Source: Cryoendolithus antarcticus
Taxonomy: Eukaryota > Ascomycota > Dothideomycetes > Cladosporiales > Cladosporiaceae
NCBI GenBank assembly: GCA_002077065.1
Contig: NAJO01000033.1
Coordinates: 248,001-312,000 of the forward strand
DNA: 64,000 bases
Reading direction: 5' to 3'
This document shows positions 23,420 through 51,025 of this stretch, piece by piece. The position numbers and the translations under genes are program-made. How positions within the stretch are numbered: position 1 is the stretch's first letter; every line of letters starts with the position of its first letter. The notes under the pieces were generated by a model. It was given only the letters and a program-made list of their open reading frames with translations, made no database searches and was not told the origin of the DNA.

Positions 23420-23578
23420 GACGTGGTGGTCGATACGGCTGTGTACCTTTCGCAGCTGCATGAGGTTGTGGAGGGGAAGGAGAGCATAGTCAGTGCGCAG
23501 TATGCTGTGTGGGCGGAGGAGATGTGGGCAGTTTGTAGGGGGAGTAAGAGAGGGTTCGGGGAGAGGTATGGGGTGTGA

Positions 23579-27232: not shown

Positions 27233-30200
27233 TCACACCATATCCTGCGCATCCACCCTCTGGTATCGCGCGTTCTTCGCCCCCGTCGCACTCGCAGCCT
27301 CAATCTTGAAACTATACGCGCTCGGCGCCCGGATACTGCCACCCCTCGGCGTGCTTCTTCCGCTCCGAGCCATAAGACTCGGGCTATCGCTCTCCCGCTT
27401 CAGACTCCAGCGGCTGAAGATCGGCACAGCCTTGCGACTACGCTCCAAGTAGCGAGGCGATTGCAGTTTGCCGACCCACAACATTTGCTCGTGCTCGCGC
27501 AAGTAGCGCTCTGAGGAGAAGGAGTCGAGCACGTTCTTGCGGCCCATCATTCCGAGCTTGCGGCGGGAGGGCGCTTTGTCGTACATGCGTTGCTGGATTG
27601 CGGCGACTTCCTCTTTGGAAGGATGGAGCGAGAGCTTTGGTTTATAGCCCGGTGGATCCCCGTCGGCGTACTCAGCCCACTCGTCTAGCAGACCCATGAC
27701 GTTCACTTGCGCTTTCGCCAGCGAGTAACTGTCGTTGGGTGCCACAACAGCGGAGAACTTTTTCCATGTCACGGGGTCGGTGACGACGCGGAAGGAGGCG
27801 CCGACGTCTGTGCACACGACTGGCACACCGGTCAAGGCTGCTTCGCCCATAGCTAGCGGCAGGCCTTCGGAAATGGAGCTGTTGAGGAAGATCCACGCTT
27901 CTTCTAGCACCTTTGAGGGATTGCCGAGACCTTTCAGCGCGACGTGGTCGCGCAGACCCTTCGAGGCGAGAATCTCCTTGCACTCGACGGAATATGAGGG
28001 CGCTTTCTCCATGTCGCCGTAGATGTCTAGCTGATAGTCCGTGAAGCCCCATTCGTTAACGATGATATCCGCGGCCAGAATGGCGTTCTTGATGTCCTTC
28101 ACGAAGCGGACGTGGGACAACATGACCACGGTGGGGATCTTCGACTTGATCTTCTCGATCGGCTGGAACTTCTCCATGTTGCAGATACCGTTCACCACGG
28201 GGTCGATCTTGCGCGCGTATTGGCGACGATGGCACAGAGTGTTCTCTTGACTGCCGATCTCGACTTCCCAGCCGGGGTTGAAGAAATCCGCACAAGGCAG
28301 CACGACGTCGGCGTAGTGCAGGATTAGTGTGGACGTCATGCGTGAGAGCGAGATGAGCGATGTGCAGACGAAGGGCGCGTCGAACGACATAGCCGAGGAC
28401 AAGAAGACCGTCACCTCGCGCCAGGAAATACAGTGATCCCAGACGTGGAAGGTGCAGTTGCGCTTGAGCTTGCAGAGCACGCCAAAAGACGCGCCCGCGA
28501 AGTGATGCGAGGCTTGGAAGACATCTGGGATGCGCTCTGGCACGGGCAGCGAGAAGATGAAGAGGTAGCGATGCCACATGTCCAAGGCGTTGTCGAGATG
28601 GGCGAGCGTTGGGCGTTCAGCGTCGAGCCATTGGGAGATCGGCCGTGCGTTCTCGACGTCTTCCGAGAGCCACAGTTCTTGCCACTTTTCTTTGACGGTC
28701 TGAGACATCCAGACATCACCCCAGTGACGATCTTGGAAGTAATTGTTCAAATCTATCAGCGCGCGGGAGGACTCCTCGATGTGTGCGTGCGTGAACTTGA
28801 TGGCGCGGGCGCATTTCACGAGGCTGGTGAGGATGGGGAAGAAGTGCTTCTTGATATCCTCATCGCGGGTATCGTAAGATCTGCGTTGTGCGGCCGAGTC
28901 TAGGGAATCTTGGAAGATGCCGTGGATGGGCGTGAGGTAGTCTAGACCCCAGAGCGGCAGGATCGAAAGTGACTGGACGTTCTTCTCGATCTGGAACTTC
29001 GGCACGCTGTAGTCATTTGCGGACTCGGCGACGACGTGCCAGCGAATGGTCTTGAGATCGTTGACCATGTCTCTGCGGCAGGCGGAGACACCACCACCTT
29101 CTATTGGCCAGGTACCGGTATCCATGGCGAGGATGTGCAGGACGTCGTCGCTGTCTTGCATTTGCGACTCTTGGGTTCTGGTGTTGATTCGTGAATCACC
29201 GCCTTGACCAAAAGTGCAGAGATCACTGTACTTGTAGGCGATGGAGGACCAGGATGCGATCTCGGGGTCCATGTCAGTCCTTGCGATGATGGCGTCGACT
29301 TGCGAGTCGAGGTACTCTCCTGCAGCTCTGAGCTGGCCGAGATCGCGGCCGGCCCAGTATGGTCGCAGCACGCTGTCAGCACGCATCGACATCTCGTCGA
29401 GCCATCGGACAGTGACTGCATCGATATCCTTAGTGCCCTTCCACGTCTGCCACAGATGTGTACGGGCGAGCGAGGTCGAGACAGGGTAGATCTTCGAGCT
29501 GAGCCCGAGCGATCTAGTGATGACGTTCGATGAAGCAGAGCGGAAGGTGAAGAGTGGGTTGTCGGCGATGAAACTACAGTTGGTCGGCTTCTTGAGCACA
29601 CCGAACCAGTCAAAAGTGATCATGTCTGGCGTAGCACTAGGCCTGCCGTTGAACTGCGTGATGATTTCCGGATGCTGCCTGTGCTCGTACACCCAAGTGC
29701 AGTGGTACGTGTCTTCGCCTTGCTGGAACGTCGCCTCCGTGACCTTCGGGTTCGGGATCCACTTATTCAGCTTGTCGGGATTCTTCGTGGGCGGCACACA
29801 CCAAGCTACGTTCATCTTGATATGAGCAAGGACGAACTCAGCTCGAAGCAGCTCGTCGTCGAAACGGGCGTTTTTGCGGTAGAAGAGCTTGAACTCCACA
29901 GTGTTGCCGTCCTTGAGGTATGATCCTGATTCGAGATAACCGCGCTCATCGTACTGGATGGTGTGACCAGATCGGTCGCCCTTGATGCATTCGCGTGATA
30001 TAGGCAGATCGCTGCCAGTAGCCTTGCTTCCTTCTGCGTACTCGTAAGCGTAGATGTTGGAGACAGATTCCTTCTGGTACTCCTCTCGTCGCTTCAGCAT
30101 CATGCGCTTCGAATAAGTATTGACCGCGATGAGCTGCCCAAGAGCTGTAGGCTGTGTAGCATGTCGTCCGGAGTAGTGATGGAACTCGATCTCGCCGTTG

Positions 30201-33200
30201 CCGGTAGGCTTGAAGAAACCAGTCGAAGGGCCTTTCAAACCCTCGACAGTGACTTTGCCCTTCTTCTGCAAGCTAGTCTTGATACCTTTCATGTTCGACT
30301 GAAGCATGTGGATTTTCTCCCTACGATGGAACATGAATATCGGCAGGATAGCACGTTGCATGGTTTTGCAGTAAACCCATAGTCCGTTCAGGGCAATGCG
30401 TGCAGGCCAACGGAGAATCGCCGGCTTGCCGGTGATGACATAGTCCAACTCGCGTTGAAATTCTGGGTCTGCGACGATGGCTACCACGAAGAACTTGATC
30501 GTGAAGCGAATGGACTGAACAATGCGCATGACCGGCCACATGAGCTTAACGATCAGCCCCGAGTCGGCAGAAGGTCGCACATCGGGCATGGCCGCAGCAA
30601 TGAAGCGCTGGTACTCTGATTCTGATGGTGCCGCGCGATCTTGGTAGTGGAAGTCGGCCTCCACAGCCTTTGCGTACTCGTTCGTCATGGCAGCAAGCGT
30701 GGCGCCGAAGTTACATCGGGCAACGTGTGCTTCGAGATCAACACCGGTGTTCTTGATGCTGTTGCGGATCCAGGCAGCTTGATCGGTGTTAATGTCACAT
30801 TGCTCGCCACAACATCTCTTCAGCAGCGCAGTGCGAACCTTCTCGGGCAAGCGGTCCCACTCTATGTCGCAGTTTACCCCGAGTAGCAGGTAGCGCAGGC
30901 ACTCATCATCACCGCTCTTCAAGATACGAGTGCGCTCGGACGCCGACCACTCGAGCTGTCGCTTCACACCTTCCGGCAAAGTGAGATCGTTGCCGTTGAA
31001 CTCGACAGCAAACAGCTCGGACATGTTGGAGTGGTCCCTGGAGAACGCAAACCGCGCCTCGGCGGCAGCTTGGACAATCGACTCGGCAATGACCTTGCAG
31101 TTACGACGAATGTCAGCCACCCACTCGTCACCAGACACATCCAGTCCGACAAGCACAAGAATGTGTAAGTGGCCGTCGGAAAGTCGGGAGACAGCTCTGA
31201 TCTTCTGCTCTTGCTGCAAGAAATGGCGCGCTGGAACAAGATCGATGGTGATATTGCCGCTAGCCCACAACGAAGCAGCTTCTGAGACGAGGCGGTCTGC
31301 AGAAGGGAAGGCGACATACAAAGCTTCGGGTTTCTCGGCAGTGGCTTGTGTGTTGAGGATCTGCATGACCTCTACGCCGGGATGTGTCTTCGGATCGATC
31401 TTGAAGCGGTACTCGCCCGGTAGAGCACACAGGGCATCGTACGTCTCTAACAGCGTGCGCTGAGAGAAGCCGGCATCGGGTCCGAGTGCGCTGTAGTAGA
31501 ATTTCGATGGCGCTGCTTTGGCCTCGTGCTTCTGCTTTTTGAATTTACCCCAGCCAACGTCGGCAGTGCGGAGGGACAGAATCGCCGCCATCCAGGTAGA
31601 TACAGCAAGAGCGACAACGCCGCTGTAGGTGAAGTCGCCGTGGTAGGTGATCAACAGGGGACCGAGCACCAATCCAGTAAATGCGGAAATCATCAGGTCG
31701 CCCATCGCGAGTGAGCCTGTGTAGATTCTGTTGTACTGGTAAGTGAGCAGTCCAGTGTAGGCACCCATGTATGACAAGAACATGATGGTTCCGGAGCGTG
31801 TGCCATCGAATGTCCACATCAGCGCAGCGCACACCGCAATACCCCAGGTGTGGGTAAAGAAGAACTTTGAGTAGTTCGTCCAGTACAGAGATCTTCGCGC
31901 TTTCGCGTCATTGATGGCAACTTGTTTTAGGTAAGCGAGCGAGGAGATGGGCTGACTCGTCTTCTTGTTTGCCCTTGCCCACAGTGGTGTAGCGACTGCA
32001 TCCAAGCACACGGCGGCGATCAGGTAATAGGCTAGACCGAAACCAACAGGCAGGCGGAAGTCACCTGTATCGCCACTGGGCTTGCCGGTGGTGGTGTCTC
32101 CGGCACCGACAGATACTCCGGAGAGACCGACGAGCTTACCGCCAGAAAGCATAGAGACCCACTTGTCCATGAGGGCGATAATGAAGTAGAGAACACCACA
32201 CCAGACCTCATTGCCTCCAGCACGCCAGTGCACGAAAGCGTTATGGAGCTTCAGTCCCTTTTGCATCTCCTTGAGTGTATCGATCGCAGTCTTGCATTGC
32301 AAATTCCATGTTGGGCTGTACGGGTAGGGCATTTTTGTCCTGGAGTATTTGCAGTACCAGTCCATGAGGAAGCAGGTAGCTTCATATCCTTGTGCCAGCT
32401 TCTGAACCATCTCATCGGCTGTGGATTTCTCCCAACGCTTCAATGCGAGCTCTTTCTGCACAGCGACAAAAATCGCTGTTCGGGGCAGGGGAGTAGGCGC
32501 CAGATCAGCGATGCCCTTGGGCAAGTCCTCGGCTGGTGTTATCTTCATGTACCAGTTGACGATGTCGCTGTCTGAGTAGACTGGCACGCTGAGGTACCAT
32601 GAACCCCATCTGAAGACGATGTTGCGGGAATTGTACATCAAGATGCTCAGGAATCCGACGAGCACGCAGGGATAGACAACGTTGTCATGGCCAGTCCAGC
32701 GCGTGATGATGGGAGGAATAGCCAGAAGGGGAATGCAGGCGACCACGGTGACACGTCCTGACTGGAACATGAATCCAGGGAATTGGTACATTGCTAGCGT
32801 GGCCAGCAGGGTGAGGTATGTCGACATGATCAGCAGGTAGAACGCGAAGAAGAACCCAGCGTAGGGACTGTGGATGATTGAGATGACGATGAAGCCACCC
32901 AGAGCAACCACAAGGCCCACGCAGACGCCCGCGATGAAGCGCGTGAGCACGAACATGTTCATTACCGGGAATGCCATGGAGTGTAGGTAGTAGCTGCCGC
33001 CGTGGCCAATCCATGTTCCAAAGGCACCAGTGAGTAGCAGTCCGAACATAAGCCCGGCAGTGGCGTGCGATACCTCAACCTTGCTCATGAAGGCGCTCAA
33101 GTACAGTCCGCGGCCAGTGGTCGTCAAGAGAAGGATATCGATCAAGGCAGGCACAGCGAAGATACCCAGGAACGTGACTTGGTAGTACCATGGTAGATCG

Positions 33201-35826
33201 GCGGTAGCTGCGTTAGGATCTTCGTCAACCAAGGTGGAGGCATAAGCAGTCGGCACCTCGGTGGACTTATCGTCACGGATGGGAGGCTGATGCTCCATGT
33301 AGTACGCCTGGTACTTGTCTGCCATGATGCGGCCGATGACGTTGGAAGTCATGTCAAAGTAGGTCTCGCATTGAGAGCCAAGAGCGAACATCTCAGAGAA
33401 ACAGGCTGCTTGATCGGGATGAGAATTCGGCAGCGGATTGCGGTCGAGAATCTCCAGATACACTTCCTCGGTGGCGACCCTTCGGAAAGCACAGAAGATG
33501 GCCATGGCGAAAATGTCGACACTTGCATCGATCTTGCCGTGTTGAATGACAGCAAGCATGACGGTCTCCAGCTTCGCAAGATGATCGGCCTCGGAGTTGA
33601 TGAGAACATTGGCCAGCTTCGATTCGACTTCGAGGAAGAGTGCAAGAGCGCTCTGCGCATCAGGATGTGCTACACCGCGATCTTTGTACCATGCGATGCG
33701 GTTGTCGATGAGCTTCTGTGCCGAGATCTCATTGCGCAGAAACATCGCTGTATTCTGCTCTCGCAATTGTGCCAGAGTGGGAATGTCCACAAGCTGATGT
33801 TCACAGCAAGCTTGGACTTGCTGCCGAAGATGAGCGCAGCCCTCGTCTTTAGAGAACACCATGCGCTGAAGAAGCAGCATCAGCTCTCGCGAGGTAAGGC
33901 CCTCAACATCTTTCACGATGCGGTTGGGCAGCTGCCAGCGTTCATGCACGGTTTCATGTTGCTCCGCCAAAGCGATCTCAGCCATGAAGCACTGCGCTCG
34001 AGTGTACTGTCTGCTCGAAAGGAACGTATGCAGGATTGTTCCGAGGCGGTCTGTTGTCTTTGCAGAGAGATAGATCTCAGTTTGGCCAATGTGAGAGTCG
34101 TAGTCGTACAAGCCCCAGAACTGCTTGTCAGTGCCATGATGATAACCTGAGTGTATCCCGACATAGATCTTGATCGTGTCGTCGTCCGTTCCCGTCGCGG
34201 CGTTCAACTGCTCGACCAAGTCACGAACCGCTGTTGAATCGTACGCGGATAGCTCCAAAGAGTTAGATTGCTCAAACAGTGTTTTTAACTTATTTGCAAA
34301 TCCACGTAGCTGTTCCGGCTTGAGTCTCTCTAACAGTTCGAGATCGCGCAATCGTCGCTGACCTTCGGTGAGCTCTCCGAAGTCTTCGGGAGTCACATCA
34401 AGTCCTATCTGGAAGCAGCCAAGTCCAGTGTAGTCCTCCCCGCGCGCGGAGTAGGAGAAAGGCGGTTTCTGCGACTGTGCCGGGATGTCACCATCGTAGT
34501 CTCCGTTGAGCACCATCTCGCTCTCCCTGTCCACGAAAGGATCCATACCCGTGACAGCCAACTTCGCAGAGAGATCTGGGATGAAGGCATGGAGCGAGTC
34601 GAACATGGCTTCATGACCAACCGGCTGCTTCTGTATTTGATCATTCTGTCGCCAGATGTCATGTACCGCCATTGTCTCATTGCTCTTTAACCACATCATA
34701 GCACCCAGTGGCTCGCCCTTGACCGTCCGCCTTTCAGCGATGTCCGCATCTACGAGTGCAGAATCGGGGCCGATCCAGGATACTGTAGTATTGAAGCGGC
34801 ACCAATTGAAGCTGCGCTTGATGATGGAATAGTGTAGGTCGATGCTATCGTCGAAGCTTTCCCACATCATCAAGGTCTTCCCACCCATTGACATGTGCTT
34901 TGCCAATGCACGTTGCGTCCGTCGCATGTCCGCCATCTGGAAGTAATTTCGGCGGTCGCCGTTGTGCAATATCGTGCCATTACGGCAGATGATGCCTCGA
35001 ACGAGGCTGAGATCGATGGTCGAGCATTCTGTGGGTGTAAGGTAGTTGGGTGGGGATGTCTCAAGCCAGACATCGAAGTTGAGTGATTTGAGGTACTTCA
35101 GTAGCTCATTGAGGACGAGAGGCGATATCTCGGCGTGCCAGTTGGCCAACAGTATCCCAGTGAAGGGCGACTGCGAGTCGGTTGGTCGCTTCCATCGCGT
35201 GGCTATCGTCTGGTCCACCATGCTCAAAACTCTTGTCTCGTCTGCATCGCCGGAGCTCTTATCATGCGCCGCTAGAGCGCCCACATCCAATCGCCCTACT
35301 CGTTGTGATGCCGAACACTCCGAAGCGCTCAGTGCCTCCAAAGCTCCCACTTGCAAGGGATCCAGTATGACAAGATCCCATCGCGTCAGAAGTCGGGCTT
35401 GACTCGGAGTGGGCGGATTCGAGAATGCCCCAAGAAATGCACCAAATGATGTCGGTGCTTTGGAAGAGTCGTGTACTGGGCCGTAGGCTTGGGTTCGCGC
35501 TTTCACATCCTCGAAGTATCGGGCTACAGGCTTTGGTATGCGCTGTACTTGCTGCTCTTTGTTTTGCCGCCGTCTTCTTATCTTCAAGACTATGATCACC
35601 GCCAGATATACCAAGCTCGAGACCACACCGAACAATGCCAATCCCGCAACGACCTAGGATGGGATCAGTATGTCGCCCTACTAGGGATCCAGTAATACAG
35701 CTGGGCACTCACTATTGACCACCAGCTGCTGGTCATGCGTTCCCATCCTATGGCATCGAGACCCGTAGCTGGATTGCCCGGCGTCGTATCGGTGACCGGG
35801 GCAGTTCCATCCGTAGGCGTCGCCAT
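27233..35826 (-). CDS. gtb3: Giant membrane glycosyltransferase, GT4 (Gtb3-like GAG synthase)
   Basis: Putative polymerase/exporter of galactosaminogalactan. Exon 1 (35826-35713) and exon 2 (35653-27233) are joined across a 59 bp intron (GTGAGT...CTAG), giving 2844 residues. The N-terminus has one membrane segment (about 39-62). A long soluble part follows (about 190-860). A polytopic block of about a dozen membrane helices spans roughly 860-1400, then more soluble sequence with one or two hydrophobic segments near 1770-1800. The C-terminal GT4 (GT-B fold, PelF-like) domain spans about 2230-2700, with VVMLSHVRFVKDI near 2535 and the EX7E motif EGLPLAMGE near 2637. Size and architecture match Gtb3 of the A. 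fumigatus GAG cluster, and the neighbours (Sph3, Uge3, Ega3, Agd3) support this. It is divergent from sph3-A. Confidence 0.9.
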
Positions 35827-37028
35827 CGTGAATGTGTAGAAATGAAAATGCTAAAACGAGTAAACTGCAACAAAATGAAAGACCTTCAAAGCCAGAGGCT
35901 ACGAATCGAGAAACGAAGGTATGGGTCAGTACCCGCAGTGACAGCGAGTATGATGTGGTGCATATACCATGACAAGCTTGTCAAACCTTCACTCAACGGA
36001 CGGGCTCCTCAGCTAGCTCCACGAATAAAGGTGATAAGTCTTGGCCGCCATGTGCAAACATGGCTACGGCACCCAAAGTAGGCGGACCATGCGATGTAGC
36101 CTCTTTAGGATAGCCCCGTGGGCACCCTCGTGGCGATCACCGCCCAAGGCGCCTCGTCTTGCTCGTGGAGTGCTTACCGGACTTGTGCGCACATTTCGTG
36201 TTGCACACGTGATCCCAGCAGGCGTGCCCAGTCGTCGCTTGCGGCACCGGCTAGAGCGATGTGAGAGGCCGTGCTTGCATAGCTTGCAACGCTCACCGGA
36301 TGGACGTTCCCCGTGAAGACGAATCAGCCGGCGAAACAAGAATACTCGAGGTGGAGTCCAGTCTTCGCCCCTGGCCCCTGGCTGGCGATGACCCGCAACC
36401 CAAAATTACCACCAACTGCAGTAGTCGCACCACCCATACGAGCTTATATTCTGCCGGATTCAGGGTTCCCCGCTCGAGTCACGCAATGCTACCCTTGCAT
36501 GCCAAGTTCATCCGCACCCGAACGATGCGTTTTGCTATGTTTCGTTTTGTACAGGAATAGACGCTGCAAGTCCAAGGAGCGACAGGAGTTGCCATGTTGT
36601 CACATCACGGCGAGTGCGAGACGCACGACCAGTCGTACCAGAGCTCCACCGCATATGTACCAGGATGGAGAGGCTTGCACCACAACCTAGGACCACATCC
36701 GAGGAGATGGAAGGCGTCCCCACCTTTGCGGCCTTCTGGAAGCCCAGACGGATGGGTGGCCCGTCTCACGGTTGAGGTGACTGCGCCACAACGATGACAT
36801 GCTTACCTCACGGCTTGACTCTCGGTTCTGCAGAAAAAGATTGCTCGCTGGGGATGCCTGCTCATGGGTGCGCTCCGTGACGCACCGTGCACATGGTGCT
36901 GAGCGCTACGCATTGCCGGGTCTCGCCGCGTCTCATGCCCCTTACGATGCACTACACTGTCACCCGTACTTGAGCCTACTGTACCAAACAAGGCCGGTAG
37001 ACGCCGTCACAAAAGATCCTCCGACGCC
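35827..37028. promoter_or_regulatory. Divergent promoter region of gtb3 and sph3-A
   Basis: These 1202 bp lie between the ATGs of gtb3 (minus) and sph3-A (plus), so both promoters must be here. Open frames exist on both strands, but none starts with ATG and carries a recognisable domain. No clear TATA box found. Confidence 0.55.
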
Positions 37029-38007
37029 ATGGAGGCACCTCGACGAAACCTGAACAGACAGAGGCAACGATCTCGAAAGACCTGGGTGATCATTGCTGCT
37101 GTCCTGCTTGTTGTGATACTCGCAGTAGTGATTCCTGTGGCTGTGGTCATCTCGAGAAGGCATCACTCGACTGGCCTACCGTCAGAGATACTACTCCCAC
37201 TTTACATATATCCACTCGCAGGAGCATGGGAGCCTCTGTACAATGCGTAAGTTGTTTGTCACATCGAAGGGAGATCCGTACTGACTGCAAATGTAGATTG
37301 AACGCGACCACAGATCTCACGTACACCGTAGTAATCAATCCGGATAGTGGCCCTGGGAACTCCACGACACCCAACAGTGACTTCTTGCCAGCGATTCAGC
37401 GACTCAATTCATACCCCAATGCGAAGACTGTTGGGTACGTCCGCACGGGCTATGGCAATCGGTCCATCGAGGATGTCCTCCAAGACGTTGAGACGTACTC
37501 TGGATGGGCTACCAGCGCCACGGGCATCCAGATGCACGGCATCTTCTTCGACGAAGCTCCGTATCAGTACTCGGCAGAGACTTTGGACTACATGACTCGT
37601 TGCAACGAGGCTGTAGCCAGCGCTAGTGGCATTGGAGGCAATAAGACTGTATGTCGATGTTTGAATAGCCCGACGATGATCTCATCGCTGACTTGCTACA
37701 GATAATCCACAACCCCGGCGTCATTCCTGACAGCCAATTGATGCAGGACTCGACAGACATCACAGTGGTCTTTGAGCAGTCCTGGGGCAACTATAGCGCT
37801 CAGGAGCCCGCATTGAAAGCACTTTCTGGTGATCGCTCGAGGTATAGTTACATGATGCATTCTGTGCCATCGTCGACGAATCTGGGCAACCTTGTGGACG
37901 ACATGAGCCGCCATAGTTCGCATCTTTTTGTCACGAACAGTGACTCTGAATACTATGCGTCGTTTGGATCGAATTGGAGAAGCTTCACTGAGCTTGTGCC
38001 CACATGA
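37029..38007 (+). CDS. sph3: Spherulin-4/GH135 galactosaminogalactan hydrolase, membrane-anchored (Sph3-A)
   Basis: Predicted endo-acting GAG hydrolase of 291 residues. Exons 37029-37246, 37297-37648, 37702-38007; introns of 50 and 53 bp. An N-terminal basic stretch precedes a strong hydrophobic helix at about residues 18-42 and then RRHH, typical of a type II membrane anchor; the catalytic part would face outward. Spherulin-4 landmarks: LPLYIYPLAGAWEPLYNA, VVINPDSGPG, VGYVRTGYG, the acidic pair in FFDEAP (D158-E159), IHNPG, VFEQSW and LFVTNSD. A. fumigatus Sph3 has the same anchored layout and is needed for GAG production, perhaps by trimming chains during export. It shares its promoter region with gtb3 and is in tandem with the next copy. 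Confidence 0.92.
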
Positions 38008-38344: not shown

Positions 38345-39347
38345 ATGGGTCGGTTCAAACAATTCCTGCGCATCATCGCGAACAAAAACCCTGCCCCCGA
38401 ATCTCAAGGCAATACGCCACGAGTCACACCTGACCCCAGTGCACGACCAGCAACGCCAGACACGCCGTCCATACAGCTTCCGCCCCGCTCAGGTGTGATT
38501 GTACCGTTGTACATATACCCATTGAACGCGGGCACATGGGAGCCGTTACACAAAGCGTGAGTATTCAGTGGCAGCGCATTGATTTTCCACCAGTTGGCAG
38601 AGGCTGATTGATGTCCCATGTATCAGTATCGCCGACCACCCTGACTTGCAATTTATCGTGGTCATCAATCCGAACAGCGGACCTGGCAAGCCGCCTGCTC
38701 CTGATGAGAGTTATGCGCAGGAGCTGCCTAAGCTGAATGCGCGGCCAAATGTCACGACGGTCGGCTATGTGCGAACGAAGTATTGCAAGCGTACGATAGA
38801 TGAGGTGTACGAGGAAGTCAAGGTGTACGCTGGCTGGTCAGAGGATGGTGAGCAATCTGGCATCTTCGTGCAAGGAGTCTTCATGGACGAAGTGCCCAAC
38901 CACCACTCAGAGCATGTTGAGAATTACCTGAACGACCTCACGACGAAGATCAAGGAGAACCCGGGGATCTTGGGTAAGAAGCTGGTAGGTCGTCCGTCCT
39001 GCTCCTATACGTATTCGTGGCTGACGTTACTTCAGGTCATCCACAATCCAGGCACCATACCGGACGAGGCGTTAACCAACACTCGTCCTGACTTGACCGC
39101 TGTCTTCGAGGAAAGCTATGCACGATACAATGCATGTGGGCCGAACGAAGACAATGCCCTCGCAATCTATGCCCGGGAAGGATGCACCTACATCCTGCAT
39201 TCTGTGCCGAAGGAGAAGATCAGACACGTCGTAAAGGAGCTCCGCTTTCGCGCAGAGTACTTATTCGTCACAAGCCTGAAGTCACACTTCTACGAAAGTT
39301 TCGGCGAGAGCTGGCCCGCTTTCATTGAGGCGATGGTGGAGGAGTGA
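38345..39347 (+). CDS. Spherulin-4/GH135 paralogue without visible targeting signal (Sph3-B)
   Basis: Second tandem GH135-like protein, 293 residues. Exons 38345-38556, 38627-38984, 39036-39347; introns of 70 and 51 bp at exactly the same positions and phases as in sph3-A, which shows tandem duplication. The catalytic region is well kept: VPLYIYPL, VVINPNSGPG, VGYVRTKY, FMDEVP, IHNPG, VFEESY, HSVP, LFVTS. The N-terminus (MGRFKQFLRIIANK followed by a Pro/Ser/Thr-rich linker) has neither a signal peptide nor a membrane helix. No ATG upstream in the 337 bp gap adds one. It may therefore be intracellular, use an unconventional route, or have an unseen upstream exon. Intron 2 is free of in-frame stops, so its retention would still give a protein. 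Confidence 0.87.
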
Positions 39348-40563: not shown

Positions 40564-41835
40564 CTACTTGCCGTTATCCGCCATCGTCAATGCGTTCCAC
40601 GTATCCCTCGAGCACTCATCCACGCCCTTCTCGGCTCTCCAGCCAAGCTCGGTCTCAGCCCGTTGCGTAGCAGCCACACAGGCACCTACATCTCCAGCCC
40701 GTCTCGGAGCAAGCACAGCCGGCACCTTCTGCCCGCATGCCTTCTCAAAGCTAGCTACAACCTCGGCGACGGTCATTCCGTTGCCAGTGCCCAAGTTGAA
40801 AGCTCTGAAAGCCTCGCGCTTGGTGTTGGACTTGGCTGCTGCGAGAGCCGCGACGTGACCTTGTGCAAGATCCATGACGTGGATGAAGTCGCGCACAGCG
40901 GTGCCGTCCCGGGTGTCCCAGTCCGAGCCAAAGATCTCAAGCTGAGGCTTCTTGCCTTGCATGACAGAAGCGACGACAGGGAAGAGATTGGTGGGCTTCT
41001 GGCGAGGGTCTTCTCGAAGGATGCCTGAAGGGTGGCAGCCAACGGGGTTGAAGTACCGGAGAGCGGTGATGCGGAGTGTAGGGTCAGCGCGAGCAACGTC
41101 GGCGAGAATGGCCTCGGCGAAGTATTTGCTGCGACCGTAGGGCGATGTGAGGCCCTTAGAGCCGTTGATGCGGAGAGCTTGTTGCCCTTGCTCGTCAGTG
41201 TAGACCTCGTCAAAGTGGACCAGGTCGTCCTCCTTAAGGGGAGCGCCCTCGTTTGCCTTAGCACCATAGACTGTGGCCGAGGAGGAGAAGACGAAGTTCT
41301 TGACACCGTTCTCTTGCAGAGTGACGAGAAGCTCGATCAGACCGCAGATGTTGTTCTGGTAGTATGCCAGAGGTCGCTCGATGGACTCCGAGACTGATTT
41401 GAAAGCAGCGAAATGGATCACACCAGAGATGCAGAACCGTGCAGCAGCGTACTTGGGAAAAAGTCCACGGAACTCAGCACTTCGGTAATCCATCTTGTGG
41501 AATCTGAGTGTTGGAGTCATAATGCCGTTGGAACGGCAATAGTCATCGGCCAGCGTTCGGATGCGGGTCAGGACGTTGTCGAAGCAATTGCTCAGGTCGT
41601 CAACTACAACCACGTTGTAGCCATCCTTCAGAAGCTCTAGCGTTGTATGGGATCCGATGTAGCCCAGGCCGCCGCAGACCATGGTGTAGTGCTTGCCGTC
41701 ATCAGCTGGGAGAACATTGTTGGCAACGGCAGGCACATCATCTCCGTGAAGAGAGGCTGCGCCAGGTGTTGTCGGTGCCGAGTCTTCGAGGGAGAGGGTT
41801 GAGTGCGATGACGCTGATCGTATTGATTGAGGCAT
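40564..41835 (-). CDS. uge3: UDP-glucose/UDP-N-acetylglucosamine 4-epimerase (Uge3-like)
   Basis: Cytosolic NAD-dependent epimerase making UDP-Gal and UDP-GalNAc, the two donors for GAG. Single exon, 423 residues from ATG 41835; the frame upstream lacks another ATG. A 50-residue Ser/Thr-rich extension precedes the Rossmann domain (GGLGYIG at 55-61). The active site has the SSSATVYG strand (184-191) and YxxxK (Y233, K237). The downstream NPVGCHPSG and FGSDWDTRDGT segments are typical of GalE enzymes. The gatekeeper position, aligned by eye, is Cys386 (DVGAC), like the Cys of human GALE that accepts N-acetylated sugars, where E. coli GalE has Tyr. This supports a bifunctional enzyme like A. fumigatus Uge3 rather than the galactose-only Uge5. 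Confidence 0.92.
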   Translation of the reverse strand: MPQSIRSASSHSTLSLEDSAPTTPGAASLHGDDVPAVANNVLPADDGKHYTMVCGGLGYIGSHTTLELLKDGYNVVVVDDLSNCFDNVLTRIRTLADDYCRSNGIMTPTLRFHKMDYRSAEFRGLFPKYAAARFCISGVIHFAAFKSVSESIERPLAYYQNNICGLIELLVTLQENGVKNFVFSSSATVYGAKANEGAPLKEDDLVHFDEVYTDEQGQQALRINGSKGLTSPYGRSKYFAEAILADVARADPTLRITALRYFNPVGCHPSGILREDPRQKPTNLFPVVASVMQGKKPQLEIFGSDWDTRDGTAVRDFIHVMDLAQGHVAALAAAKSNTKREAFRAFNLGTGNGMTVAEVVASFEKACGQKVPAVLAPRRAGDVGACVAATQRAETELGWRAEKGVDECSRDTWNALTMADNGK

Positions 41836-44034: not shown

Positions 44035-45108
44035 TCATGGATCTGAGACCACCAGAGTAGTGTTTGCCGTGACCTGATCACAGAACTCTACCCAACCATC
44101 TAGGTCCATGTTCTTCATCACTGCGCTGAACGATGCGCTGCCGTCTGCATCGCCACTCCTGGAGCAGAAGTCTGATGCGACCTTGCTCGCCACTTGTCCA
44201 ATGGCAGACTTGGGATACTCGATGTGGAAGACTGGCTTGCCTGCTTCCACCATTGGTGCGAACTTCCCGCATTCACTGAACTGTACGCACTGCTCGTTCA
44301 CCGAGAACTGTACAGTGGATGTGAGGTTCGACAGCACTTCGCCAGCATTCTTCAGTCCGATGGACATGTTACGAGACATCGCCTCGGAGGACAGGAACTC
44401 CATGTAGTTGATTGTGTCTGCCTGTGTGAGGCCTAAGCCGTTATCGTTGTTGTACGCATCAACGTTATCCGGGTCCAGGCCGTCGCAGCCTTTGGAGCTG
44501 GCGAGCTCGATGCGTTTTGTCATGATGTTTCGGACGTTCTGAGAACGGAGGTCTATCCAGTGCTCGTCAGGCCAGCCATCCAGAGCCTTGCCAATGACGT
44601 TCGAAGCAAAGTCTCCAGAGTCTGGTCGATATGGCTCGTATGACCCGCCACTGAAGTAGCAGATGACCTTCTTGCCGAGGCCGTGAAGTAGCTCGATGGT
44701 GGTGTTTGAGTTTGTGAAGAGGTCGATGTCAAACACCTCCACATCCGGGTCCGTGGTCTTGTTATCTGCCGTAATCAAGACAGGGTTCTGGAGCGCGATC
44801 TGCCATGACGCTGCTACGCCAGGTTGCCAGTAGGTCCCGTTGCTAGTCGCGTTCGCTGTGGGTGATGGGCCTACTGGCGAGGAGGAAGATGGTGATGAGC
44901 CTTCGTCGCCGCCTCCGTTATTCCGAGTGAGTCCGACACCAAGTCCTACAGCGAGCGCGATGATCAGGACTGAGGCCAGAACTCCAACAATGATGAGAGT
45001 TCTTCGAGTAAAGCGTCCAGGCCGCTTTCGAGGTGGCAGCTCATTGCGGCTGCCTCCGAGTTCCTTCATCCTGATGGAGTCACCGTTGCTCGACTGCATG
45101 CTTGCCAT
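44035..45108 (-). CDS. ega3: GH114 endo-alpha-1,4-galactosaminidase, membrane-anchored (Ega3-like)
   Basis: Single-exon protein of 357 residues predicted to cut alpha-1,4-linked galactosamine stretches of GAG at the cell surface. A short cytosolic N-terminus with KRPGRFTRR precedes a hydrophobic helix (about residues 36-58), so it is a type II membrane protein. A Gly/Ser/Pro-rich spacer follows. The catalytic barrel has GH114 landmarks: WQPGVAASWQIAL, VFDIDLF, KVICYFSGGSYE, WIDLRS, the aspartate of GLDPDN (D212, likely nucleophile), GLKNA, and the EQC/ECGKF segment. Ega3 of A. fumigatus is also membrane-anchored and lies in the GAG cluster. It is divergent from agd3 across 1352 bp, suggesting shared control. 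Confidence 0.92.
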   Translation of the reverse strand: MASMQSSNGDSIRMKELGGSRNELPPRKRPGRFTRRTLIIVGVLASVLIIALAVGLGVGLTRNNGGGDEGSSPSSSSPVGPSPTANATSNGTYWQPGVAASWQIALQNPVLITADNKTTDPDVEVFDIDLFTNSNTTIELLHGLGKKVICYFSGGSYEPYRPDSGDFASNVIGKALDGWPDEHWIDLRSQNVRNIMTKRIELASSKGCDGLDPDNVDAYNNDNGLGLTQADTINYMEFLSSEAMSRNMSIGLKNAGEVLSNLTSTVQFSVNEQCVQFSECGKFAPMVEAGKPVFHIEYPKSAIGQVASKVASDFCSRSGDADGSASFSAVMKNMDLDGWVEFCDQVTANTTLVVSDP

Positions 45109-46460
45109 CTTCGCAGGTTCGCGTGAGTCGTTTCCGACCGATGGTGCGACACTCCGGTGCTATTGCGTGAACTAGGGAAGTGACCTGTCCGTTCGCACCT
45201 GTGATGAACTGCGACAAGGACACGAATGATGAAGCTGCCGTTCTCTGCTACCTTGACAGGATGTTGAAGGTCGCAGTGGATGCTGTATAGATTCGAGCAC
45301 GACTCATGACCTCCGTCGAACGTGCTGAAGTCTAGATCCTGAGAACGCTAATACCAAAAGGCCAATCAACGCGCGGCCGCTGACTGTAGTCTGTCGCTCT
45401 CAGGTATCTGACCACCTCAACTGTAATATCCAAGGCGTGAATTGCCTCTGCACGGCAACGCTGAGACGCAGTCTGAGAGGTCGTTGGTCACCTGTACGAT
45501 CACTCACGAATGTCAACCTTGGCGGTTGTCGACAAATACTGTTCGCTAATGGCTGTCGAGTCAGGACAAACGCGGCAGAACACGGGGCGTACTGTAGCAA
45601 TAATTGGGCGAAGGCGCTGCCGTCAGTGTGCCGTGCAGAGGCTAGCGCCTTTGACAAGCACTGCATACGAGCCAGTCTCATCCCTGCCAAGCGTGACTGA
45701 AATTGGATTGCCACTGCGTTCTGATGCTGCGCTGGGGCTCGGAGTAAGGTGACTCTGAAGCTCACGCGGCAAACTGTTCAAGTCGGCTGATGAGCACCTG
45801 CGCGCAGCTTCGGCAACGGTACCGAGTGTAGAGTCTGGAGTCAAAATGCGCAGCCTGACTGGACCCATGCAACGACTAAGGCGTCACCAAGACCGTAGAG
45901 TGACAAGCTGACGGGTAGGACAGATCCACAGGCCACATGCGTCGGGGAACTTTAAAGTGGTGTTATTTTGGGTCTGCCCTGGCTCTGGCAACGCTGGGAC
46001 CCAAACAAGAACTCGCTGCCGGTCTGCTATACACGAGCATCGCATACATCCGCCTCATCATTGAGACACGTCATGAGGCCCAGGCGAATGATTGAAGCTG
46101 GTATCCATGCAAGGGACAAGACATTGTGGTGCCAGCACCAGCCTTTTCACAATAGCGTTTGGTCGTTGCGTGATGCACTGATGTTGCCTCCACCGTCGAT
46201 GCCCAGACCGCCTAGTACCATCGTTCTCTTTGTGGCTGCCACATCCGGGAGCATGGGCTCGACTCGCTTGACGGCTCTATTAAAGCACGCCGCATATTTG
46301 GCATCGGATCGACCGGTTACCACCATATTCGCCAAGCATCCCTCTTCACATATAGCATACCTCGCTGGGGCACTCACCCACAGCACCTCACCTTCTCCTA
46401 CACGGCTCTTCATTTTCTCTACTTTCGCTTATTCCGCGTGTCTACGCACCTACTTTCGTT
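45109..46460. promoter_or_regulatory. Divergent promoter region of ega3 and agd3
   Basis: These 1352 bp hold the promoters of both genes. A weak TATAGC near 46351, 110 bp before the agd3 ATG, could be a core element. Frames on both strands have no recognisable product. Confidence 0.55.
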
Positions 46461-48945
46461 ATGGCATCGTTATTATGCCAGATGCTAGCAGCCATTGGGC
46501 TTGCATCTTCAATCGCCAGCTGCCAAACCAGCACCACGCCAGTGGCGACGACTTCGACCACAAGCTCAACGAGCGTGGCCACCACCAGCGCAGTCGTCTC
46601 CAGCTCAACCACTCCCGTTGTAACCACACCGACTAGCTCTGCTGCGACCAGTGCAGCCACGACCAGCAGCACAGTCGTCATCAGCTCTTCCGCCAGCTCA
46701 GCACCCACCTCCAGCAGCACAGATGGTACGATCGTAGTCTCTGAGACGGTCCCTGCTGGAACCACAGTCACTGGCACGACCTCTGCCGCGCCACCACCAG
46801 CCTCGGCGACCACCGATAACGCCGTGACCACAGCGCCTGCATCGTCAGCAGCCCCTCCAGTCGCGTCTGCGACACCAGCTGGTAACATCAATGTCGCCCA
46901 AACCATCCTGGTCCTCGTCCGCACTGCAGATGACCCGTACGCTGTGATCTCGGGCCTCCAAGGCTACGGCATCCCCTACCAAGTCGTCCAGGTCCCACAG
47001 ACTGGTTTCACCCTGCCAGCACTGAACTCGTCGGCCACGCAAGGCAACTACGGTGGTATCATCTCGCTAAGCGAGCTGGCCTACGAGTACTCGACTGGCT
47101 GGGCTGCCGGTATCTCGACTGACCAGTACAACCAACTCTACGCGTACCAGACTGCCTTTGGTGTGCGCTTCGTTCGTATCGATGCCTACCCCCAACCGGC
47201 TTTCGGTGTGTCCACGGCGGCACAAGGTGTCGGCTGCTGTGGACAGGATGTCGAGCAGTTGATCAGCATCTCAAACGCTACAGGTTTCCCGGGCGCGAAC
47301 ATCAAGACCGGTGCCACCATGTCGACCAAGAACATGTACCATTACCCGGCTACCATCACGGATCCGCTTACCACATGGGAGGTGGCGAAGTACGCGCCCG
47401 ATGCCAACGGCGTGTTCAATACTGACACTACCGCTGCTGTGATCAACAACTTCGCTGGCCGCCAACAAATGGTGTGGTTCGGCTCATGGGCCACCCAATG
47501 GTCGCCAACATCCAACTTCTTGCAGCATGCATACATCCACTGGATGACTCGTGGTCTGTTCGTCGGTGCTCGCAAAGTGTACTTGAGCACCCAGATTGAC
47601 GACGTGCATCTCAACAGCGAGATCTACTACCCAGGCAACACCACATACCGCATCAACACCAACGATCTGGTCAACCACGTGGCATGGACTAAGGCTATTA
47701 ACTCCCGCATGCCAGCTGGATCCAATTACTTCATCGAGCTTGGCCACAACGGCAACGGAGACATCATCGAAGCCACAGCTGCTGCCAACACTGCCTGCAA
47801 CCCGGCAGATGCCATCTTTTACGACTTCCCGCCTGACACTCCTCTTGAGTTCCAGAAGCCTCTCGGCTCTGGTGTCAACAAGTGGCCCAGCACCCCGGCC
47901 TCGTACAGCTGGAGCATTGCATGCGCGAAGCGGGACTCTCTAGCCAACTGGTTCACAACCGCTGCCAACCGTGATGCGTTTGCTCACATCTCGCACACGT
48001 TCACGCATCTTCCTCAGAACAACATCACCTACAGTGACGCAAACAAGGAGATCGTGTTCAACCAGGCTTGGCTGAAGCAGATCACCATCTCTGCTGGCAA
48101 CAAGTTCTCTAGCAAGGGCCTCATCCCACCTGCCATCACTGGTCTCCACAACGGCGATGCTCTCCGCGCTTGGGTTACGAACGGCATCACGAACGCTGTC
48201 GGCGATAACAGTCGCCCTGTGCTCTTGAGCCCATACAACCAGCACTGGCCGTTGATCTCCAACGTGTCGGCTAACGGCTACGCTGGCGTGACAATTGTGC
48301 CTCGCTGGCCCACGACCATCTACTTCAACTGCGACACTCCTGCCTGCACGACCCAAGAGTGGATCAACACTGCTTCCGGCAAGGGTGGCTTCAGTGATCT
48401 GTTGAACTTTGAGAAGACGACCACCATGCGCTACCTCTTTGGTCTGCGCCATGACGGGTACATGTTCCACCAGGCCAACCTTCGTGTGGCGGATCAGCCC
48501 ACTTCGACCATCGGCTCGCAGACCGCCAAGCTCAGTATCTTCGAGTCGTGGGTCGAGACTATGGTGCAGGAACTTGGTCGCTTGTCAAACTGGCCTTTGA
48601 CCTCGCTCAAGCAGGACGATCTTGCTGCGCAGTTCGTAAGTCATCCACTATCTACCACTATTTTCTACCACAGTGACTAACGTCTCATCTCAGACCAGCC
48701 GCATGACCCGTGACAACTGCAAGCCTTCTCTGTCGAACACCCTGTCCTCCGACGGCAAGACTATCACAGCCGTCACCGTCACAGCCACGAACAACAAGTG
48801 CGGCACCACGATCCCGGTGACCCTCCCTGGCAACGCACCATCAGGCTACACAGCAGACAAGGTCGGCTCTGAGCCCAACATCGTCTGGGTGTCGCTGACC
48901 GGCAGCGCTGTCAAGCTCACGCTACCGACGCCGGTCGCTTTGTAA
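46461..48945 (+). CDS. agd3: Secreted polysaccharide deacetylase (Agd3-like, CE18)
   Basis: Predicted extracellular enzyme that partly deacetylates GalNAc residues of GAG, giving the positive charge needed for adhesion. Exons 46461-48635 and 48694-48945, joined across a 58 bp intron with a GTGACTAAC branch site; 808 residues. A signal peptide (about 1-20) is followed by a very Ser/Thr/Val-rich stretch (about 21-140), probably O-glycosylated. The Agd3-type region then starts at NVAQTILVLVRT. The likely metal site is the aspartate pair of STQIDDVH (D380/D381) and HTFTH (H512, H516), the arrangement of deacetylases. A C-terminal beta-rich part with paired cysteines ends the protein; there is no GPI signal. 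Length and Ser-rich layout agree with A. fumigatus Agd3. Confidence 0.93.
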
Positions 48946-50212
48946 GAGATTGATCTTGCTGCATGTGTGTGTAAGCATGGCGAGGGCGTCGGGGAAACAG
49001 CCACACAATGGGCAGGGCATAATGATGAAACAAAAAGCTGTATCGCTTTCTCTTATTTCTTGTACCTTACTTTAAGCAGGCTACTGCGATGCCTCTGCGT
49101 ACGATAGTGTAACTCAGACATCCACCTCTAAATATACGACTCACATTGATTCTTTTGCCACTTGCGACACCTTATAAGCACGTCGCGTGTAGGGCATGCT
49201 ATCACTCCGGCACGGGGCTAGTGTTGTCGCACAGTGCCCGTTTACAATGCTGGCAGACAGATGCTGCTGCATACGCTGTGCCACCACTGCGCACGCCTCA
49301 TACCACTGCAATACCTCATCGCTCAGCTCCGCAGGATCCATCAGCCTAGAGCGTGAGCATGAACGGGTCTAGCGACTTGGCCATGGGAGATTGGTGCTTT
49401 TTGACGAGCAAAAGTCCCACTCATCGTCGCGTATTCTCTCCGCGCCGCGCAGTAGTCTAAGCCTGACTCGGGGCCAAGTCGATAAACTGATGATCTAGCC
49501 AAAGCAGGCGCTTGCAGATCGAGTCAGGCCACCGCTCCCTACGCAAATTGCATACCGTAACAGATTCTGCACTGCACACTTCGGTCGCTCAGTCGTCACG
49601 CACACGAGGTCTGCAGGTCTTGTCATTGTCCGCATCCTTTCTCGGTCCACGCGCCTTGCAAGGCTATCACGCGAAGTTGAAATGACACGGAGTGTTTCAG
49701 TATCAGATCATGCGAGTCTGGGCCCTGACCTGCAGGTACCCGTCGCTTCCCGCACCTCTGGCCAACCTCACTCGCGCCCCAACCCCTGCATCCTCCGCAT
49801 TACTGCTTGCATAAGTGTCTTGGACACCTTGGACGTGAGGATCACTTCATTTGCGCAACCGCGGACCGCCCACTTGCCAACATGTGTTTGGTCCACTTCT
49901 TCCGTTTCATACCGCGCCATGTGGGGATCACAAGGCGTGATGAATGATCGCCCGGCAGTAGGTAAGTGGCTTTTCCGCTCATGGTTGGTCCCGAGCAATG
50001 CCTATAAGGCTCGTCCAGCCGCCCACCTGGTGACGACCTTTCTTTGTCGTCCAAACCCACAACGAGCCGCTCTTGAAGACGCGCATCACGGTCATTACCA
50101 GTTCATTGATTGAACATAGCCTTGACGGCTCCCACATTCCTTTACCCAACTTCATTCACTCTTTCCGAAACGAAACGCAAAGCACCAGCGCCGAACCACA
50201 CCCGAAATCGCA
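48946..50212. other. Intergenic between agd3 and sph3-C
   Basis: This 1267 bp stretch holds the agd3 terminator and sph3-C promoter. It contains a TATAAG site (listed separately) and an APSES-like TCGCGTGA on the minus strand at 49667-49674. Frames of 60-140 codons on either strand look random. Confidence 0.5.
50003..50008 (+). promoter_or_regulatory. TATA-like element of sph3-C
   Basis: TATAAG about 205 bp before the ATG at 50213. The intervening sequence has no in-frame ATG reaching the gene, and its last 100 bp is pyrimidine- and A-rich, as in fungal 5' UTRs. Called by inspection. Confidence 0.35.
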
Positions 50213-51025
50213 ATGGCCATCTTCAAGAACCTCATCATCTCGAGCGTGCTCGCTACTTTGGCAGCCGCTGCGCCCATCCAGAAGCGCATCGCTCCCAACC
50301 CAAACCTCCATGTAGCCCTTCCGCTGTACAGCTATCCCCTCGCTGGCGTCTGGGACCCCACCTACAACACCATCGCCTCCAATCCTTCGACGACGTTCGA
50401 TGTGATTATCAACCCTTCCTCCGGTCCTGGCTCGTACCCACCTGAAAGCGATTACCTTTCAGGCGTTCACAAGCTTCAGACGTACTCCAACGTCAACGTC
50501 TACGCTTACGTCCGCACTGGCTTCACTGAGCGCAGCGTCTCTGACGTCGCGGACGACATCAACACCTACAAGAAATGGACCACCGAACTCAACACTCCTC
50601 TCGCAGGTTTCTTCGTTGACGAGGCACCCAATACTGTCGGTGACGGCAACTCCAATGTCAACTACATGAAAGACGTTCACTCCTCCATCGGCTCCAGCTT
50701 CCAGACTTGGACCAACCCAGGCAGCACGGTCGACGCCGCCTTCTACGACTACGCCGATACCGTCACAGCTTTCGAGACAGACTACAGCACGTGGGTTGAT
50801 CCCGCACGTACTGCTATCCCATGGGACCTTCACTCAAAGACCTCTGTCATGATCATGAGGTACGATGGTGCAGCGAGCGGCGCCGCGGACCAGGCGAAGG
50901 TTTTGATCGAGCGTGGCTTCAAGTCTGGGTTCGTTTGGGGTAACGAGGACTACCAGGAGTTCTCGCAAGCGTGGGCAACTTTCAGCGATTCTTGCGCACA
51001 GCATGCTGGGTCCTACAGGGTATAG
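50213..51025 (+). CDS. Spherulin-4/GH135-like protein, secreted (Sph3-C)
   Basis: Third spherulin-4 protein of the cluster, 270 residues, intronless. A clear signal peptide (residues 1-20, MAIFKNL... to AAAA) is followed by QKR, a likely Kex2-type site at residues 23-25. The domain has LPLYSYPLAGVWDP, VIINPSSGPG, AYVRTGF, the acidic pair in FFVDEAP (D136-E137), TNPG, FETDYSTW and a final FVWGNEDY strand. It is clearly more distant from Sph3-A and Sph3-B than these are from each other and lacks their two introns, so it is an older or independently acquired copy. It should be freely secreted. It may degrade released polymer, or have another target. Confidence 0.88.
   Translation: MAIFKNLIISSVLATLAAAAPIQKRIAPNPNLHVALPLYSYPLAGVWDPTYNTIASNPSTTFDVIINPSSGPGSYPPESDYLSGVHKLQTYSNVNVYAYVRTGFTERSVSDVADDINTYKKWTTELNTPLAGFFVDEAPNTVGDGNSNVNYMKDVHSSIGSSFQTWTNPGSTVDAAFYDYADTVTAFETDYSTWVDPARTAIPWDLHSKTSVMIMRYDGAASGAADQAKVLIERGFKSGFVWGNEDYQEFSQAWATFSDSCAQHAGSYRV

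What the first reader, a model, noticed from the sequence alone, without database searches (positions are those of the whole stretch)
27233..51025. Complete, rearranged and expanded galactosaminogalactan (GAG) cluster
Five functions known from the A. fumigatus GAG cluster (Gtb3, Sph3, Uge3, Ega3, Agd3) sit together in 24 kb with no unrelated gene between them. Each call rests on visible motifs: EX7E in GT4, the spherulin DE pair, YxxxK, GLDPDN and HTFTH. The order here (gtb3, sph3-A, sph3-B, uge3, ega3, agd3, sph3-C) and the three spherulins differ from the five-gene Aspergillus set. The organism probably makes a cationic, partly deacetylated GalNAc/Gal adhesive polymer.
Basis: partly seen in the sequence, partly recalled or inferred. 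Interest (0 to 1): 0.9.

Follow-up and report, generated by a model that had tools for sequence, protein, structure and literature searches.

The report
GAG cluster with predicted cytosolic hydrolase
An Antarctic rock fungus carries two diverged copies of the gene cluster for a sticky sugar polymer, and the cluster includes a widespread, little-noticed hydrolase that seems to stay inside the cell, where the polymer is made.

Summary
Window 27.2-51.0 kb holds a complete galactosaminogalactan (GAG) cluster: Gtb3, three Spherulin4/GH135 genes, Uge3, Ega3 and Agd3. Contig lengths and database proteins identify the genome as Cryoendolithus antarcticus. A second whole cluster lies on contig C68 (95-97% protein identity, dN/dS 0.03-0.09), within a block matching window 9-64 kb. 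Another gene order is ordinary for GAG clusters. The "expansion" is the interesting part. Sph3-A is the known membrane-anchored Sph3; Sph3-C has a signal-peptide-like start. Sph3-B has neither, and is not a local duplicate: it belongs to a clade of 124 GH135 domains (support 0.957) that keep the catalytic D-E pair, and none of the 83 single-domain members with a complete start shows a signal or anchor. In 33 of 124 rows compared it shares a contig with Gtb3, in four classes of Pezizomycotina; in at least three genomes it does not. The papers I read in part describe five genes, or six in Neurospora, and the passages seen do not mention it. Gtb3 is also predicted to begin with a barrel resembling GAG/Pel galactosaminidases, with the usual catalytic positions apparently replaced. 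Mechanism (inferred): Sph3-B trims, clears or primes nascent GAG in the cytosol, as AmyG serves alpha-glucan.

The parts
27233..35826 (-). gtb3: GAG synthase, about 2844 aa; exon 1 35713-35826, exon 2 27233-35653 (terminal stop included)
   Evidence: splice agrees with database protein P0001 of the C68 copy
34706..35476 (-). N-terminal (beta/alpha)8 barrel of Gtb3 (model residues about 31-287), galactosaminidase-like fold
27701..28174 (-). GT4 catalytic domain of Gtb3; DUF3492 just upstream is a sub-threshold match
   Evidence: DUF3492 22.2 bits, curated cut-off 23.3
37029..38007 (+). sph3-A: membrane-anchored GH135, exons 37029-37246, 37297-37648, 37702-38007
   Evidence: N-terminal Kyte-Doolittle maximum 3.56
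38345..39347 (+). sph3-B: GH135 without detectable signal peptide or anchor, predicted cytosolic; exons 38345-38556, 38627-38984, 39036-39347; equals B0A48_13577
40564..41835 (-). uge3: UDP-glucose/UDP-GlcNAc 4-epimerase, 423 aa; SPYGRSK motif; Cys in RRAGDVGACVA
44035..45108 (-). ega3: GH114 endo-galactosaminidase with N-terminal membrane segment; DPDN and VNE catalytic motifs intact
46461..48945 (+). agd3: CE18 deacetylase with CBM87; main exon to about 48.66 kb, probable second exon about 48.69-48.945 kb (limits approximate)
   Evidence: the residues named in PMC7229062 can be read in the alignment
50213..51025 (+). sph3-C: probably secreted GH135, single exon, signal-peptide-like start and KR site (read by eye)

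Best explanation
This is a working GAG cluster of Cryoendolithus antarcticus, present twice as diverged homeologs, with three GH135 hydrolases predicted in three places: membrane-anchored (Sph3-A), cytosolic (Sph3-B) and secreted (Sph3-C). Uge3 supplies UDP-Gal and UDP-GalNAc; the cytosolic GT4 domain of Gtb3 polymerises them and its membrane part exports the chain; Agd3 partly deacetylates it outside; Sph3-A and Sph3-C cut acetylated chain and Ega3 cuts deacetylated chain. New here: Sph3-B is an ancient paralogue, linked to Gtb3 in many Pezizomycotina, that most likely works on the cytosolic side of Gtb3, trimming, clearing or priming nascent acetylated GAG. The Gtb3 N-terminal barrel, predicted cytosolic, probably holds the chain without cutting it in the usual way. 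Shown by computation: gene content, duplication, constraint, the Sph3-B clade, its catalytic residues, its lack of detectable targeting signals and its linkage. Inferred: where the proteins sit, what Sph3-B does, and what the Gtb3 barrel does.
For: Gene content and residues. A. fumigatus Gtb3-like P0053 50% identical over 98%. Second cluster on C68: blocks at 73-91% nucleotide identity from window 9.1 to 64 kb; dN/dS 0.028-0.088 for all seven genes (with Ega3 and the Agd3 main exon recounted from the first Met). Sph3-B clade of 124 domains, support 0.957: 93 single-domain proteins and 31 second domains of longer models; of the 93, 83 have a complete barrel start and none of these shows an anchor or signal (highest 17-residue hydropathy 1.18), while the 32 anchored GH135 domains fall outside the clade. 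62 of those 83 have 10 or fewer residues before the profile start. Catalytic residues: D 124 of 124, E 124 of 124, third E 123 of 124 with one gap. Linkage: of 136 GH135 proteins in hand I entered 124 with contig length; 33 share an exact contig length with one of the 120 listed Gtb3 rows, and all 33 carry a Sph3-B domain. 30 two-domain models place a domain from outside the clade before a B-clade domain. The Sph3-B model fits A. clavatus Sph3 (E 2.4e-26, rmsd 2.2, 38% identity). Residues after the first Gtb3 membrane segment are more positive than those before in 80 of 83 rows with a detectable segment, of 120, which puts the barrel in the cytosol. Precedent: agsB is clustered with intracellular AmyG and GPI-anchored AmyD (PMC7329490 passages), and AmyG promotes alpha-glucan synthesis (PMC8592254 abstract).
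Confidence: 0.72

Rival explanations
1. Sph3-B is simply a redundant copy of Sph3 by tandem duplication; it reaches the cell surface by an unconventional route and does the same job as Sph3-A.
For: A and B are adjacent, head to tail, with introns at matching sites; same fold and catalytic residues.
Against: B forms its own clade across four classes, so it is old, and both copies are under strong constraint (dN/dS 0.05). An old redundant enzyme would be expected to keep or regain a signal somewhere among the 83 single-domain members with a complete start; none was detected.
Confidence: 0.2
2. Sph3-B acts on a different intracellular glycan or in spore differentiation; its neighbourhood with Gtb3 is inherited but not functional.
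For: Some genomes have B-type genes away from Gtb3. The family name comes from Physarum spherulation (recalled).
Against: The PF12138 matches found in this genome are all in the two GAG clusters (11 of 11); 33 contig matches with Gtb3.
Confidence: 0.2
3. The two clusters are the two haplotypes of a highly heterozygous or hybrid diploid rather than a fixed whole-genome duplication.
For: Syntenic blocks at 73-91% identity with two local inversions. The published assembly is 47.4 Mb with 18,781 genes (PMC5502844, main text part 1 of 2), against 24.6 Mb and 10,933 genes for Rachicladosporium sp. CGMCC 3.30118 (PMC12560822 passages).
Against: Synonymous divergence of 0.26-0.87 is high for alleles; inversions and about 1.5 kb of extra sequence differ between copies.
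Confidence: 0.45
4. The clusters are decaying relics that no longer make GAG.
Against: The seven genes are open in both copies under the gene models used (the second exon of agd3 was not compared), with dN/dS 0.028-0.088 and catalytic residues kept. Part of this constraint may predate the joining of the two subgenomes.
Confidence: 0.05

Closest known systems
Aspergillus fumigatus GAG cluster (gtb3, agd3, ega3, sph3, uge3)
   Same: All five functions, with homologous proteins and catalytic residues
   Different: Other gene order (the A. fumigatus locus numbers are), three GH135 genes instead of one, whole cluster present twice in the genome
Neurospora crassa GAG cluster (NCU05132-05137)
   Same: Same five functions; also carries a sixth gene
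   Different: Its sixth gene is a small signal-peptide protein of unknown function (PMC11356417, section 3.1), not a second GH135
Sph3 of A. clavatus (PDB 5c5g), founding GH135
   Same: Catalytic D-E pair and third E in Sph3-A, -B and -C; fold shown for Sph3-B
   Different: Sph3-B lacks the membrane anchor; Sph3-C has a signal-peptide-like start and matches 5c5g by sequence only over the first two thirds of the chain
agsB-amyD-amyG alpha-glucan cluster of Aspergillus
   Same: Works alike: a large synthase clustered with an intracellular and an anchored hydrolase (PMC7329490 passages)
   Different: Unrelated enzymes (amylases) and polymer; an analogy, not membership
Bacterial Pel system (PelF GT4, PelA GH166)
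   Same: Alpha-1,4 GalN/GalNAc polymer; the GT4 region of Gtb3 has a near-threshold DUF3492 match (that DUF3492 is the PelF N-terminal domain is recalled); the Gtb3 barrel resembles PelA's hydrolase domain
   Different: Gtb3 is a single protein; its barrel lacks the two usual catalytic residues by strand alignment and is predicted cytosolic

Membership tests
GAG biosynthetic cluster | Glycosyltransferase, epimerase, deacetylase and a hydrolase or spherulin at one locus (criterion of PMC4817252, passages) | tested here: met
GAG biosynthetic cluster | Co-regulation and production of a GalNAc/Gal polymer | not testable with these tools
   no RNA or chemistry
GH135 (Sph3-B) | Spherulin4 domain, barrel fold of Sph3 | tested here: met
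   9.2e-64; E 2.4e-26, rmsd 2.2
GH135 (Sph3-B) | Catalytic D-E pair and third E | tested here: met
   124 of 124, 124 of 124, 123 of 124 (one gap)
Sph3 orthologue proper (Sph3-B) | N-terminal membrane anchor | tested here: not met
   Sph3-B is therefore not filed as an Sph3 orthologue, while Sph3-A is
GH135 (Sph3-B) | Cuts acetylated GAG | not testable with these tools
   needs purified enzyme
GH114 (Ega3) | Catalytic Asp and Glu (D189/E247 of A. fumigatus Ega3) | tested here: met
   DPDN and VNE invariant in 3 of 3 rows (both copies here and A. fumigatus)
CE18 Agd3 | DD, HxxxH, R, M and H catalytic residues | tested here: met
   alignment read by hand against the residues named
Galactosaminidase barrels GH114/GH166/GH191 (Gtb3 N-terminal domain) | Barrel fold | tested here: met
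Galactosaminidase barrels GH114/GH166/GH191 (Gtb3 N-terminal domain) | Catalytic Asp after strand 4 and Glu after strand 6 | tested here: not met
   Ala in 50 of 53 and Asn in 53 of 53 rows at the positions I matched by strand order, by eye; no residue-level structure alignment was available
Galactosaminidase barrels GH114/GH166/GH191 (Gtb3 N-terminal domain) | Sequence homology | tested here: inconclusive
   no significant profile match to GH114 (3 rows) or GH135 (49 rows)
Bifunctional Uge3 epimerase | Small residue (Cys) at the gatekeeper position (recalled from human GALE) | tested here: met
   Window protein reads RRAGDVGACVA; the paralogue on C2 reads RRAGDVLNLTA

The most novel reading that the evidence does not exclude
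GAG synthesis in much of the Pezizomycotina includes a conserved cytosolic GH135 (Sph3-B), the sixth core function of the pathway, which acts at the cytosolic face of Gtb3 to prime or clear the growing chain. Gtb3 is itself a fusion of a PelF-like GT4, an export channel and an inactivated galactosaminidase barrel that guides the chain. Fungal GAG and alpha-glucan systems would then have converged on the same design: synthase, intracellular hydrolase and surface hydrolase.
Probability: 0.3. Interest if true: 0.75.

Novelty: new variant of a known kind. Interest (0 to 1): 0.58.

Why it matters
Why an exopolysaccharide pathway needs hydrolases is open: Sph3 is essential for GAG in A. fumigatus, yet the reason remains unclear (PMC6753227 and PMC7329490, passages); a published suggestion is that it prevents clogging on the outer side of Gtb3 (PMC12054363, passages). 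A second, conserved, apparently intracellular GH135 gives the question a new handle that can be tested in ordinary laboratory fungi. It also suggests that five-gene definitions taken from A. fumigatus miss a part of the pathway, and that many database gene models (27 of 30 two-domain ones here) may merge two tandem genes. The structural hint that the uncharacterised Gtb3 begins with a galactosaminidase-like barrel is a domain-level reading that my literature searches (12 of 82 and 10 of 58 papers listed) did not show.

Tried and rejected
Rejected: sph3-B as a recent local duplicate. Rejected for most cases: the two-domain database models as true fusions; in 27 of 30 the second domain begins at profile position 26 or later, near the first intron of sph3-B, so it lacks the first strand. 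Three of 30 keep it and could be real fusions. Corrected: the first dN/dS count for Ega3 (0.099) and Agd3 (0.126) included 17 and 35 codons upstream of the first Met; from the Met they are 0.051 and 0.088. Led nowhere: profile-profile comparison of Gtb3 with GH114 and GH135; Pfam on Gtb3 pieces 1-3 (nothing above cut-offs). Viral and prokaryote collections were not used, being irrelevant to a fungal genome. GH135 Sph3 does not appear in the 50 VIA rows for Gtb3; this is no evidence either way. Whether A. fumigatus itself has an Sph3-B gene was not settled: only 120 of 251 hits were listed. Supplements of PMC4817252, where its synteny figure lies, could not be read, so a second spherulin drawn there cannot be excluded.
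Full report
WHAT IS THERE. Pfam assigns GT4, Spherulin4 three times, epimerase, GH114, and Agd3_CE with CBM87. PDB sequence matches are Agd3, Ega3 and Sph3. Gene models were refined by hand: sph3-A and sph3-B have three exons each, interrupted at matching sites; sph3-C has one. No further conserved gene was found in the gaps. That test covered frames of 50 aa or more and would miss short or multi-exon genes.

WHOSE GENOME. The window is C77:248001-312000 of a 46.97-Mb assembly. C68 is 738,956 bases long and C77 is 510,084. Database proteins of Cryoendolithus antarcticus sit on contigs of exactly these lengths. This is the Antarctic endolithic black fungus formerly called Rachicladosporium antarcticum (that the two names are one species is recalled); the published assembly of that name is 47.4 Mb with 18,781 genes (PMC5502844, main text part 1 of 2).

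TWO CLUSTERS. From window 9.1 to 64 kb, blocks align to C68:252-312 kb at 73-91% identity, with two inverted segments at window 16.7-23.6 kb and 57.7-64.0 kb (window 1-9 kb was not tested because no C68 sequence before 252 kb was fetched). Both clusters have all seven genes. Protein identity is 95-97% and dN/dS is 0.033 (Gtb3, exon 2), 0.050 (Sph3-A), 0.050 (Sph3-B), 0.036 (Uge3), 0.028 (Sph3-C), 0.051 (Ega3) and 0.088 (Agd3 main exon) (counted from the first Met). Part of that constraint may predate the joining of two genomes. Synonymous divergence differs widely between genes (0.26-0.87), which might mean patchy gene conversion; this was not tested. The matches found for PF12138 (11 of 11 rows), GH114 (2 of 2) and Gtb3 (2 of 2) in the genome are all in these two clusters. 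Agd3-type deacetylase domains also occur on C76, C64 and C140.

THE EXTRA SPHERULINS. Sph3-A starts with an anchor like that of the other anchored GH135s (hydropathy 3.56). Sph3-C starts like a secreted protein (1.81). Sph3-B starts MGRFKQFLRIIANK... with nothing hydrophobic (-0.32). A search with Sph3-B (41 hits) and then with an alignment of 14 sequences (251 hits, 120 listed) showed that it is not a local oddity. I classified the 136 GH135 proteins then in hand plus Sph3-A, Sph3-C and A. clavatus Sph3 by profile domain and tree, keeping domains that cover 150 or more profile positions. Sph3-B falls in a clade of 124 domains with FastTree support 0.957: 93 single-domain proteins and 31 second domains of longer models. 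Of the 93, 83 have a complete barrel start, and none of these has a detectable anchor or signal; the other 10 are cut and cannot be judged. The 32 anchored domains lie outside the clade; their own common ancestor is weakly supported (0.695). Rooting used Sph3-C, a distant relative, so the branching order of A and B is less certain than the separateness of B. The catalytic D and E are present in 124 of 124 and the third E in 123 of 124, with one gap. AlphaFold gives a barrel (pLDDT 88.4) whose best PDB matches are the two A. clavatus Sph3 entries.

LINKAGE. 33 rows, on 33 contigs of 22 kb to 5.4 Mb, share an exact length with a Gtb3 contig, and all 33 contain a B-clade domain. By my recalled taxonomy they come from Dothideo-, Euro-, Leotio- and Sordariomycetes. 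Near or adjacent locus tags support closeness in several: Cryomyces minteri B0A49_05479/05480, Conoideocrella QQS21_001475/001476, Chaetothyriales DV736_g4461/g4460, Cercospora zeina g6822/g6824 (names). Against: Drepanopeziza, Dendryphion and Dothidotthia have the two on different contigs; Neocucurbitaria, Amniculicola and Clohesyomyces have a second B-type gene elsewhere; cases from different assemblies could not be judged. In 30 two-domain models a domain from outside the clade precedes a B-clade domain; in 27 of them the B part starts at profile position 26 or later, near its first intron, as expected if tandem A and B genes were merged by gene prediction. The Naganishia vaughanmartiniae Gtb3 model also ends in a Spherulin4 domain that begins beyond that first exon.

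HOW IT PROBABLY WORKS. The published scheme is Uge3, then Gtb3 polymerisation and export, then Agd3 deacetylation, with Sph3 and Ega3 as remodelling hydrolases (PMC4817252, PMC7329490 passages); Sph3 has been proposed to prevent clogging at the outer side of Gtb3 (PMC12054363 passages). Into this I place Sph3-B on the cytosolic side. Three roles are possible: making short GalNAc primers, clearing chains that fail to enter the channel, or setting length. The nearest precedent is AmyG, an intracellular amylase whose gene, outside section Fumigati, is clustered with the alpha-glucan synthase agsB and the anchored AmyD, and whose loss lowers alpha-glucan and its size (PMC7329490 passages; PMC8592254 abstract). 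I favour trimming or clearing slightly over priming, because I know of no separate primer for GAG; this is judgement, not result.

WHAT IS KNOWN. GAG clusters, with shuffled order in some species, are known from many ascomycetes and one basidiomycete (PMC4817252 section read; PMC8224951 passages). Papers read in passages describe five genes in A. fumigatus, A. oryzae, Metarhizium and Verticillium, and a section of the Neurospora paper six, the sixth unrelated. Searches for an intracellular or second spherulin in this context (15 of 31 papers listed, 8 of 18) and for GAG in this fungus (10 of 21) listed nothing whose title or abstract start reports it; this covers open-licence papers only. Bamford 2015 on Sph3 is not held.

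SIDE RESULT. In a tree of 74 Gtb3 proteins chosen from the 120 listed, the two Naganishia (basidiomycete) proteins sit inside the Dothideomycetes (supports 0.978 and 1.0 for the two enclosing nodes; class labels recalled). This suggests horizontal transfer, a second case beside Trichosporon asahii, though FastTree with an arbitrary root is only a first look and contamination of the assemblies is not excluded.

On re-reading, the dN/dS range and identities were mended, the claim about signals was narrowed to the 83 judgeable proteins, the dropped rows were named, and the structural tie was stated.

Noticed in passing
P0029, P0076: Two Naganishia (basidiomycete) Gtb3 proteins nest inside Dothideomycetes in the tree: possible second horizontal transfer of GAG genes into basidiomycetes. 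One gene model also carries a Sph3-B domain at its end.
   Followed up: partly
window 16740-23571 and 57704-64000 against C68: Two local inversions between the homeologous segments, and about 1.5 kb of extra sequence on C68 between agd3 and sph3-C.
   Followed up: no
window 27.2-51 kb: Synonymous divergence between homeologs ranges from 0.26 (agd3) and 0.27 (sph3-B) to 0.87 (gtb3) within one cluster; patchy gene conversion is one possible cause.
   Followed up: no
C76:224907-226061, C64:493126-494280, C140:15277-16500: Further Agd3-type (CE18) deacetylase genes outside the GAG clusters; their role is unknown.
   Followed up: no
window 38345-38380: Sph3-B begins with a predicted helix (MGRFKQFLRII, model helix 2-12, low confidence), basic and amphipathic by eye, which could dock on the inner membrane face.
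   Followed up: no
window 52341-54050: A GH5-family gene (Cellulase Pfam) lies just beyond sph3-C and falls in a block also present on C68; whether it belongs to the pathway was not tested.
   Followed up: no
L032 sph3-B copy (C68:284222-285221): The second intron of the C68 sph3-B copy appears to use a GC-AG splice pair; the database model P0122 is spliced differently and drops conserved residues.
   Followed up: partly
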